A DNA stretch of 36,722 bases from Pezizomycotina sp. ARF18 (taxonomy: Eukaryota > Ascomycota), in the NCBI GenBank assembly GCA_002224055.1, contig AZLU01000318.1, positions 1 to 36,722 of the forward strand. Direction: 5' to 3'. The number at the start of each line of letters is the position of its first letter. The stretch's first letter is position 1. The translations under genes were made by a program, and so were the position numbers. This document shows positions 22,647 through 26,097 of this stretch, piece after piece. The notes below the pieces were generated by a model that ran no database searches, was not told where the DNA came from, and saw only the letters and a program-made list of their open reading frames with translations.

Positions 22647-25600
22647 ATGGCAACTCAGGCGAGCGATGCAAGCGAAGAGTATGATCTGGTTATTTTAACG
22701 GATGCTACTAGCTCGATGGGCATCTACCTTAAGGCGCTCAATACCTCTTTGCCTCAGATCTTAGCCCTTAGCGAGCTTACCTCCGCATTCCGCTCCATCG
22801 GCATCCTAGCTACCGTGACTATAATGATAGCGAGATTATTCAATGGAGCGGCTGGTACACCCCAAGCGCTGGGGCGGCGGCAACGGCGGCAGAAGGCGGT
22901 AGCGGTAAAGTCGTAGATCTCTTTGCGTTTGCCAAGTCTCTGCAGGCCTACGGCGGTGACGATTTCCCCGAGGCAGTGAAAACGGCGGCGTGGAAGCTCG
23001 TCCAGGTCCTTAACCCCGGACGGCGCACGCTCGCTCTGTGGTACGCCGACGCGCCGCCACATCACCTAAACGCGCGCTCCTGGGGAGGACAGATGGAAAA
23101 GGAAATCAAACGCTTGAGATCAGAGGAGACGGGCAAGCCCTTCCTAGATTGGTTCTCAGCATGTCAGCAGCTGCGCGAGAACCGTGTCCAGGTTTTCACC
23201 TTGCTTGACCCGATGATCGGGTTCTACAAGTGTTTTTACGTAGTGTTAACACGGTAAGTTTTTCCATCCAAAGAGCTATACATATATGCCTTTGCCTTTG
23301 CTAAATTTTATACTTATTGCCATCAGAATCACCGGAGGAACAGCATTGCTATTCCCGAAAGAACGAATGAGCCCGCGCGATATCTCCCTTGCGACGGTGG
23401 ACTTGATCCTTGCTTTCCTAGACCATCATAGGGAAATACAGATCCTGCTAAAGAGAAGGTTCAAACAATTGCCTTCGAGAGCGTAAAGGATTCGAAAATG
23501 CTAAGAGCGAAGCTCCGGAGGACAATCTGGGCTTCTTGCCTCATGGTAAGCCCCATAAAGACGAGCCGCCGAAGAAGGGTTTAAAACAAATTCCCTTCAG
23601 CCAGGAGCACGTCCGCCGGCGTGTTGGGAAGATTCCCAATTTTTCAGAGCGCTTCCAACAGATCCTGAGCACAAAGTACCGTCTACAAGTCGCTGCAGCG
23701 CTTGATCGAACAGGATGTCACGGCGATCTCCCTGAACCCTGTGTTCGGAGAGCTTTGGCGAGCTGTGTGCAAGGATCGCCTCTCCGACGAGAGGACGGCG
23801 GTCGTTGACGCGTTTTCGAACTCGGTCGGGAAACTTTCCGGTAGGAAAGGATAAGAACAACATGAACGCTTGGCTGAGGAGAGCTACGACTCTTCAGCCC
23901 AGATCGAGAAATTATCGAGAAGGTGGACAGCGGAGACATGTATCCCGCCGTCTGCATCGACCCCACCGAGTCTAAAATCGGATCGGACCACTGGGCTCGT
24001 AGTGAACTGCTGGAAGTCGGCAGGAGCTGTTACTCCGGCGTGCTGAAGCGGCTAGGAGCTATTCTCACGAAGGATCTCGTTTTCATCGAAGACGAAGCGT
24101 CAATGCCAGCGCACTTGCGTGACAGCAAGGTGGTGCCGATGCTGCCGTTCGCATTGGCCGGGAAGAAACATGGTCAGATTTTCTGGAATATCCTCCTTCA
24201 CTTGGTCCTGCCCGGCACAATGTTGACAACGAGGGCCGGTAACGTGCTTGCGGCACTTGCTATTAAAATGGGCATCCCATTCCTGAAAGAACCAGCCAGG
24301 GAGGCCTTGAGGCTTGGAAAGGGAAGTGGAAGGACCTCGACACTACAGAAAATTGGAGCGTAGACATCATGCAGCTGTTGACCAGCGCCGACGACATTGG
24401 AGAAGGGAAATTTCTCGATCCGAATGAAAAGTCTTTATTCCGAAACCTGGTTGATTACAAGTTTGCAGAACTTAACCTGGAAACGGAACTCCACGCTCGC
24501 ATTCCGTTCACGCCGGAGAAGACTGTCGGATATGTTGGGCCGTCGAGCAGTGCAGCGAGTGCAAAGTACGAGCGTAGCGTCACTATTATGGGAACCGGCA
24601 ACAACAAGGGGCTCTGCGGAATGTGCTTGTACAAACCTCAGTCTCAGAAGGAAAAAGAATGGTGGAAGGAAGCAATGACACCAGGGCAAAGGACAAGACC
24701 CTTCCCTGGGTAGAATGTATGAGGCCTGAGTGCCACGCTGCGTATGTTGTCCACAACGTCGAGGCGTTGAATGTTGGGCAAAATGTCATTACTGCCGTTT
24801 CCAAACGAGTCAGGTCGTGAGCAAACGTGTCCCTGGATCTCATGCAATAACTGTAAGAACCGCATTGTCTGGCCGGAGGAATACCGAGATGGTCGGAGAA
24901 GGAGTTCCTGTGCGTATTTTGCCAGGAGGAAGGGCGGGAAAGCATTGTGGTGGCTCCAACAACAGCGAAACAACTCCTGAATGAGAACCCGCAGTGGATT
25001 CTTGGAAGGACGGTCCGAGAAGATTGGCTTTAAGGGAAGGTCGATATACGCGGTCGTGAAGGAGGTCGGTGTCGAAACTATGCAGTCTTATTTAACTGTC
25101 CTCCCTGAAAGCGAGCGTGGTCCCGAGGTCTTGAAGCACAAGCCAATCCACAATCCTAACGAAGTCAAAGGTGAGTACAATATATATCGCCCTCCTTTGT
25201 TTCCCCTTTAGAAGGGTTAAGCTTTTTTTATATTCTTTGGTTTCGGTACGTCTGATGTGAATTCGACTTTCTTATAGCGGGAGTTCGCCCGGTGGATCAA
25301 GGAAGGGAAGTGGAGGCCAAGTCGTGTTCGCTCTGCTTCGAAAACAAATTCAAACCTTCGGACGTATTCCGCGCCTGTGGAGAAGGGCTGCCCAAATAAG
25401 ATCGATGCAGACTGCATGAAGGAATGGTACGGGATAAACAAGCCTGGAGGTCTGCTCCACTTCAACGCACTACATTGTCCGTTCTGCAGGCGTCTTCCAA
25501 ACCCGAAGGTATGATTGTCCAATCAAAGGGCATAAGGAAACGATTTTCTCTTTCTTTTTCTTTCTGTCTCTCCTGTCTTTTTTTTTTTTTTTTTTTTTTT

Positions 25601-26097
25601 TTTCTCATTGCTAATATCGTCATCAAATGTATGTGGTTAGATCCTTGCCAACTTCTCCTTCGGAATTAGAGCCGTTGCGGATCTCCAGCGAGTAATCAAC
25701 GATAGGCAATGATATACGCCTGGTGCATTGAGTGCTCCACCGCAAAGCCGCTGATGGAAAGGATATGCAGGGTGCAGGAGGACCTCCAGAGCTCAAAGAC
25801 TGAAGTGTGACGATTGTTCCACTAAAGCCCTGATCCCATCGAAGAAGTGCCCGGGTGTGGGATCCCGACGGAGAAATCTGGCGGCTGCAATCACATAACA
25901 TGCCCAGTCGGAACATGCAAACCCACTGGTGTTTCGCCTGTGGAATAGCATTTGATAAGGATCGCATCTACGATCATTGAATAGGGTTCATGGCGGATTA
26001 TACAGAAACGAGGTGCTGAATGAAGAGGACGACGACTCAGACAACGACTGAATACGACTCCGACGGATACCAGGCCAGCGACTGTGACAACTTTTAA
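22647..26097 (+). CDS. vWA-domain / RING-IBR-RING (RBR) E3 ubiquitin ligase-like protein, four exons, frameshifted
   Basis: Exons 22647-23253, 23327-25170, 25278-25508 and 25641-26097 give about 1,045 residues. Residues 12-200 form a von Willebrand A domain: YDLVILTDATSSMGIYLKAL has the metal-site motif DxTxS, then ILAYRDYNDSEIIQWSGW, YGGDDFPEAVKTAAWKLV and TLALWYADAPPHH. A second beta/helix block (TRITGGTALLFPKER) closes it. The middle (ACKDRLSDERTAVVDAFSNS; FLDPNEKSLFRNLVDYKF) is long and helical, with Cys pairs from about 24560 (CSEC, GLCGMCL, CPWISCNNCKNRIVWPEE, CVFCQEE) suggesting zinc sites. Exons 3 and 4 hold the RBR: RING1-like CSLCFENKFKPSDVFRACG with ALHCPFCRRLPNP; an IBR-like AWCIECSTAKPL and KCDDCS; then RING2 CPGCGIPTEKSGGCNHITC with THWCFACGIAFDKDR. 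RING2 matches Parkin-type RING2, placing the catalytic Cys at codon 25886-25888. The expected activity is ubiquitin transfer through a thioester on that Cys; the vWA domain may recruit substrate. At least ten one-base frameshifts are crossed. The stop is either TGA 26049-26051 or, after one more base loss, TAA 26095-26097, which extends the acidic tail. Confidence 0.85.
25578..25603 (+). repeat. T26 homopolymer in the last intron of the vWA-RBR gene
   Basis: T26 lies in the 132-bp intron 25509-25640, 37 bp before the 3' splice site TTAG, and may serve as an extended polypyrimidine tract. Confidence 0.9.

What the first reader, a model, noticed from the sequence alone, without database searches (positions are those of the whole stretch)
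22647..26097. Fusion of a von Willebrand A domain with an RBR ubiquitin-ligase module
One gene reads from a metal-site vWA domain (DATSSM, YGGDDFPEA, ADAPPHH) through several Cys-pair zinc sites into RING1, IBR and a Parkin-like RING2 with the catalytic Cys in SGGCNHITC. The known RBR groups (Parkin, Ariadne, HOIP, Dorfin, TRIAD) recruit substrate through other N-terminal domains; I do not recall a characterised vWA-RBR enzyme. A secreted- or adhesion-type ligand domain used inside the cell to choose ubiquitination targets would be a distinct design.
Basis: partly seen in the sequence, partly recalled or inferred. Interest (0 to 1): 0.72.

Follow-up and report, generated by a model that had tools for sequence, protein, structure and literature searches.

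The report
Fungal vWA protein with parkin-like RING2
A probably fungal gene, read here through a noisy genome assembly, seems to join a metal-site vWA domain of the kind used inside cells to a tail resembling the catalytic end of the ubiquitin ligase parkin, but without the usual middle domain, so it may be an unusual, unstudied ubiquitin ligase.

Summary
The observation largely holds. On the + strand, 22647 to 26097, shifting frames and three plausible introns spell a vWA domain, Cys-pair sites, a weak RING and a clear parkin/Ariadne-type RING2 (Rcat) with its Cys at 25886-25888. Frame breaks also split HSP70 and RPB2 genes of this assembly, so most are probably sequencing indels; some other genes are unbroken, and decay of the last exon is not excluded. 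The vWA is related to that of a vWA-alpha-kinase gene in the same genome and of a phage vWA protein: the VwkA-type intracellular vWA, not an adhesion domain. So it is RBR-like, not a canonical RBR. Most likely a RING-to-Cys relay ligase aimed by its vWA; activity is inferred. vWA-RING ligases exist in plants. From memory, fungal proteins of this architecture are already annotated but unstudied. Eight full-text searches listed no vWA-RBR enzyme.

The parts
22647..26097 (+). whole gene, inferred: ATG 22647, stop 26095-26097, three introns, many frame changes
   Evidence: three-frame reading, motif places and splice-like sites, coding path
22647..22807 (+). vWA part 1 with DATSSM (22701-22718), frame 0
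   Evidence: unjoined piece 22647-22805 matches L047 vWA, pairwise E 2e-4
22808..23253 (+). vWA part 2: YRDYND, AYGGDDFPEA, YADAPPHH, frame 2
   Evidence: unjoined piece 22808-23251 matches L047 vWA, pairwise E 5e-5
23254..23326 (+). intron 1, inferred (73 nt, GTAAGT...CAG)
23327..24578 (+). end of the vWA module (ITGGTALLF) and a middle region; single-frame pieces of it match no family; several frame changes
24579..24931 (+). Cys-pair sites CGMC, CMRPEC, CHYC, CNNC, CVFC that look like zinc ligands
   Evidence: no Pfam hit, only chance-level PDB hits
25171..25277 (+). intron 2, inferred (107 nt, GTGAGT...TAG)
25319..25493 (+). RING1-like finger, weak; nearest to FANCL RING, where FANCL has His this reads Asp
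   Evidence: zf-RING_2 14.6 bits, cut-off 27.3; FANCL E 0.13
25509..25640 (+). intron 3, inferred (132 nt, GTATGA...TAG)
25715..25817 (+). short Cys-containing linker in the IBR position (CIEC ... CDDC); not a canonical IBR
25839..26003 (+). RING2/Rcat: SGGCNHITC (catalytic Cys 25886-25888, His two residues on), WCFAC, then two His
   Evidence: IBR_2 37.3 and IBR_1 30.3 bits, cut-offs 27; parkin E 2.8e-9; unjoined piece E 0.0024
26004..26094 (+). acidic C-terminal tail, with one more frame change

Best explanation
An intracellular, RBR-like ubiquitin ligase of a fungus. Shown by sequence: a VwkA-type vWA domain, Cys-pair sites, a weak RING and a parkin/Ariadne-type Rcat with Cys and +2 His. 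Inferred: the RING recruits a ubiquitin-charged E2, ubiquitin passes to the Cys at 25886-25888 and then to a target that the vWA binds or senses through its metal site. The canonical IBR is missing or reduced to a short Cys-containing linker. The frame changes are mostly indel errors of the assembly.
For: vWA: (hhalign 96.9%, E 1.7e-10, 109 columns). Rcat; Cys and His align with parkin Cys431 and His433 (residues named in PMC3940038, passages). One gene. Breaks as assembly errors: HSP70 and RPB2 split at touching profile positions; forced coding path 14 switches in 3141 exon nt here, 6 in 1783 and 7 in 1609 nt in two of the six HSP70 loci laid out (penalty 8).
Against: No IBR; RING below cut-off; third triad position reads His, where parkin and HHARI have Glu and HOIP Gln. 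vWA below its Pfam cut-off (VWA_4 11.8 bits, cut-off 27), and the genome search with VWA_4 returned only L047, not this gene. By motif frames I count at least 18 frame changes, more than the path finds, about 5.7 per kb against 3.4-4.4 in the two HSP70 genes. In exon 4 the path has 5 switches in 457 nt, no better than shuffled sequence (3.1). Some genes of the assembly are unbroken over long stretches (L047 579 aa, though L047 was in the training set; an 879-aa frame on C257). The coding path also called 755 nt on the reverse strand of the gene region. No RNA and no relatives from other fungi were available.
Confidence: 0.6

Rival explanations
1. A pseudogene, or a gene decaying at its 3' end: once a vWA-RBR-like ligase, now broken in this strain.
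For: Exon 4 has 5 path switches in 457 nt, my hand count for the gene (at least 18) is above the HSP70 rate, a RING ligand position reads Asp, and some other genes are unbroken.
Against: Path rate for the gene, 4.5 per kb, is close to two HSP70 genes (3.4 and 4.4); 16 of 18 unmasked sampled regions have no frame of 300 aa; homology runs on across the breaks inside the vWA and the Rcat.
Confidence: 0.2
2. A non-catalytic scaffold: vWA plus zinc sites, with the Rcat-like part used for binding only.
For: No canonical IBR, weak RING, His in place of the Glu/Gln of the triad.
Against: Cys and +2 His of the Rcat are kept in a parkin-like alignment.
Confidence: 0.15
3. Two neighbouring genes, a vWA protein and a RING2 protein, read as one.
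For: No RNA evidence; the coding path stops at 25176.
Against: No non-coding gap on the path from 23477 to 25176; the other gaps can be explained by introns with splice-like ends.
Confidence: 0.07

Closest known systems
RBR ubiquitin ligases (parkin, Ariadne/ARIH1)
   Same: Rcat with CP..C, GGC(N/M)H and WC..C; catalytic Cys and +2 His
   Different: no canonical IBR found, RING1 weak, vWA and extra Cys-pair sites in front
VwkA-type vWA-alpha-kinases (Dictyostelium VwkA, said to have two Neurospora relatives in PMC1420674, passage; L047 in this genome)
   Same: related vWA with D.T.SMG, Y(R/K)D, GG.D.PE and DAPPH (comparison made with L047 only)
   Different: the alpha-kinase end is replaced here by Cys-pair sites and an Rcat
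Plant RGLG copine/vWA-RING ligases (PMC10397244, passage)
   Same: a vWA-type domain and a RING in one ubiquitin ligase
   Different: no Rcat (recalled); sequence relation not tested
FANCL RING
   Same: spacing of the weak RING (E 0.13)
   Different: not significant; the rest of FANCL was not sought
Fungal proteins annotated 'von Willebrand and RING finger domain protein' (recalled, from no call)
   Same: as I recall, the same order of vWA, zinc sites, RING and IBR-like end
   Different: could not be compared here; two phrase searches listed no paper

Membership tests
RBR E3 ligase | RING1 | tested here: inconclusive
   zf-RING_2 14.6 bits, cut-off 27.3; FANCL E 0.13
RBR E3 ligase | IBR/BRcat between RING1 and Rcat | tested here: not met
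   no PF01485 hit at E<=1 in the joined query; C318 not among the 11 genome matches; no IBR among 6 chance-level PDB hits; Ariadne control of the same genome 86.6 bits
RBR E3 ligase | Rcat/RING2 | tested here: met
   IBR_2 37.3 and IBR_1 30.3 bits, cut-offs 27; parkin E 2.8e-9; in the six-frame search the piece alone has 18.7 bits, below cut-off
RBR E3 ligase | catalytic Cys with His two residues on | tested here: met
   GGCNH aligns with parkin GGCMH; residues named in PMC3940038 (passages)
RBR E3 ligase | third triad residue Glu or Gln | tested here: not met
   His before WC..C (THWCFAC); the site lies next to a frame break
RBR E3 ligase | Cys-dependent ubiquitin transfer | not testable with these tools
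   needs biochemistry
vWA (VWA_4 / VwkA type) | metal-site residues (motif D-x-[ST]-x-S recalled) and later loops | tested here: met
   D19 T21 S23, G103 G104 D106 P108 E109, D135 A136 P137 invariant in three sequences
vWA (VWA_4 / VwkA type) | Pfam profile over its cut-off | tested here: not met
   VWA_4 11.8 bits, cut-off 27; not returned by the genome search; unjoined pieces no vWA hit
vWA (VWA_4 / VwkA type) | homology to proteins that pass the profile | tested here: met
   P0001 31.8 bits and L047 55.2 bits
vWA (VWA_4 / VwkA type) | vWA fold | tested here: inconclusive
   single-sequence model of part 2, mean pLDDT 39.3

The most novel reading that the evidence does not exclude
A fungal class of RING-plus-Rcat relay ligases that work without a canonical IBR and are aimed by the same kind of vWA module that is also attached to an alpha-kinase, so that one metal-site adaptor serves both phosphorylation and ubiquitination of related targets.
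Probability: 0.25. Interest if true: 0.65.

Novelty: new variant of a known kind. Interest (0 to 1): 0.42.

Why it matters
If active, it would be an RBR-like ligase that does without the IBR, which would show how much of the RBR is needed for a RING-to-Cys relay. A vWA shared with an alpha-kinase in the same genome would suggest that vWA domains are a general targeting module inside fungal cells.

Tried and rejected
Searches that led nowhere: unjoined vWA pieces in Pfam, NCBIfam and PDB (chance-level hits only); joined vWA in PDB (three xylanase chains at E 1) and PHROGs (none); joined vWA in plasmids (five hits, best E 0.2). Relatives in IMG/VR (two pieces) and in GTDB genomes (one piece): 4, 2 and 33 pattern matches, none confirmed; this method finds close relatives only and no fungal collection was on hand. 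Relatives of the phage vWA in IMG/VR: none. Close second copies in the own genome: one chance hit at E 0.2, none. Single-sequence AlphaFold of vWA part 2: mean pLDDT 39.3, not used. Middle Cys-pair region: no Pfam family, two chance-level PDB hits. Rfam and tRNA scans of the window: nothing. 18S rRNA to name the organism: not completed. Paper leads that proved irrelevant: PMC2873923 (the two terms belong to different genes) and PMC9180643 (the vWA domain there is that of Rpn10). Eisenhaber 2007 on RBR proteins is not held. Adhesion/secreted reading of the vWA: rejected because of its VwkA-type relatives.

Limits of my own controls. The frame path was chosen by hand, partly guided by memory of fungal relatives; this favours good matches. 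Joining-free checks are. In one search the 20 regions were picked by me, some on contigs with IBR hits, and not at random; 2 held masked N and were dropped (18 left; the count printed in that call includes them). The coding path called nothing in RPB2 locus L045, 755 nt on the reverse strand of the gene, and read 22500-22772, 23229-23476 and 25177-26298 as non-coding. In one search, only two of the six HSP70 loci were run; at penalty 6 one of them has 10 switches instead of 7; the path finds none in exon 3, where I read at least one.

Full report
What is there. The window is contig C318 of an unnamed assembly of 46.4 Mb in 408 contigs. Intron-like gaps, an Ariadne gene (L029: UBA_ARI1, IBR and RING2) and a Zn2Cys6-like motif that I read by eye on the minus strand at 12351-12869 make a fungus likely; the species was not established. 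At 22647 an ATG opens a gene that runs on the + strand to TAA at 26095-26097. The frame changes many times; three gaps of 73, 107 and 132 nt carry GT...AG ends.

Why the frame is broken. On C49, seven HSP70 rows show six frame changes with gaps of at most 31 nt; on C15 RPB2 rows that touch change frame. Of 20 regions of 10 kb that I picked, 18 had no masked bases, and 2 of those 18 have an open frame of 300 aa or more. A forced codon-usage path gives 14 switches in the 3141 nt of the four exons (4.5 per kb), against 6 in 1783 nt and 7 in 1609 nt for two HSP70 genes (penalty 8; the second has 10 at penalty 6). Most breaks are therefore probably assembly noise. Against this: by motif frames I count at least 18 changes, about 5.7 per kb; exon 4 has 5 path switches in 457 nt, no better than shuffled sequence (3.1); and some genes are unbroken over long stretches, such as L047 with 579 aa (part of the training set) and an 879-aa frame on C257. 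Decay, above all of the last exon, is not excluded.

The vWA. On its own it is below the Pfam cut-off (VWA_4 11.8 bits, cut-off 27), and a genome search with VWA_4 returned one gene, L047, and not this one. But the better of two hits in 50,697 phage records is an annotated vWFA protein (E 3e-3), which passes VWA_4 and aligns at 30% over 138 columns. L047 is a vWA-alpha-kinase and aligns at 27% over 131 columns; both unjoined pieces match it separately. A two-sequence profile of these finds the domain at 96.9%. None of 500 shuffles reached either score. Dictyostelium VwkA likewise has a vWA before an alpha-kinase, with relatives in Neurospora (PMC1420674, passages).

The zinc part. A 25-aa single-frame piece finds Ariadne and parkin RING2 first; 29 of its 31 PDB hits are named parkin, Ariadne-1 homolog, ARIH1 or ARIH2, one is SD01679p and one an unrelated eggshell protein. 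The joined query passes IBR_2 and IBR_1 and matches parkin at 2.8e-9. The Cys at 25886-25888 and the His two residues on correspond to the catalytic Cys and His of parkin (PMC3940038, passages); the third residue reads His instead of Glu/Gln. The RING before it is weak and nearest to FANCL. Between RING and Rcat lie about 75 residues with five Cys, four of them in two pairs (my count); no IBR profile or structure matches, while the Ariadne gene of the same genome gives IBR 86.6 bits. Further Cys-pair sites lie between vWA and RING without a known family.

One gene or two. A coding path with a non-coding state runs from 23477 to 25176 through frame switches but without a gap. It does not call the RING part, and it nt on the reverse strand, so it is a blunt tool. 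The splice-like sites fit one transcript; no RNA data were on hand.

How it may work. Inferred: an E2 binds the RING, ubiquitin goes to the Rcat Cys and then to a target that the vWA holds or senses. The vWA keeps its metal-site residues, so it is a plausible binding site. None of this was measured.

Known or new. Plant RGLG proteins have a copine/vWA domain and a RING (PMC10397244, passage); a table of PMC6118397 lists a vWA group of eight Arabidopsis RING proteins (passage); a choanoflagellate U-box protein has a vWA (PMC3087547, passages). Eight searches listed no paper on a vWA-RBR enzyme (judged by titles and, for five of the papers, by passages; one search listed 20 of 32). From memory, fungal proteins of this architecture are annotated in public databases; I could not check that here. 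I file it as a new variant of a known kind, RBR-like and not an RBR member, because the IBR was tested and not met.

Noticed in passing
L047:1261-2997 (G000:C190; vWA match at 32413-32769): vWA-alpha-kinase gene in one open frame of 579 aa, with a vWA related to that of the finding.
   Followed up: partly
7535-7993 +: Piece of an FAD-binding (FAD_binding_4) protein, 85.1 bits.
   Followed up: no
32019-32720 +: Piece of a ZIP zinc transporter with a His-rich stretch, 70 bits.
   Followed up: no
12351-12869 -: Zn2Cys6-like start (CDACRLRK), read by eye; no Pfam hit at E 0.001.
   Followed up: no
L033 (G000:C219:28001-38000): Three IBR matches within 3 kb and two more near 47 kb on contig C219: perhaps a local cluster of RBR genes.
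   Followed up: no
L025 (G000:C50:50001-60000): A 10-kb stretch at 25% G+C, where the other 17 unmasked sampled regions have 34-50%; perhaps an AT-rich isochore.
   Followed up: no
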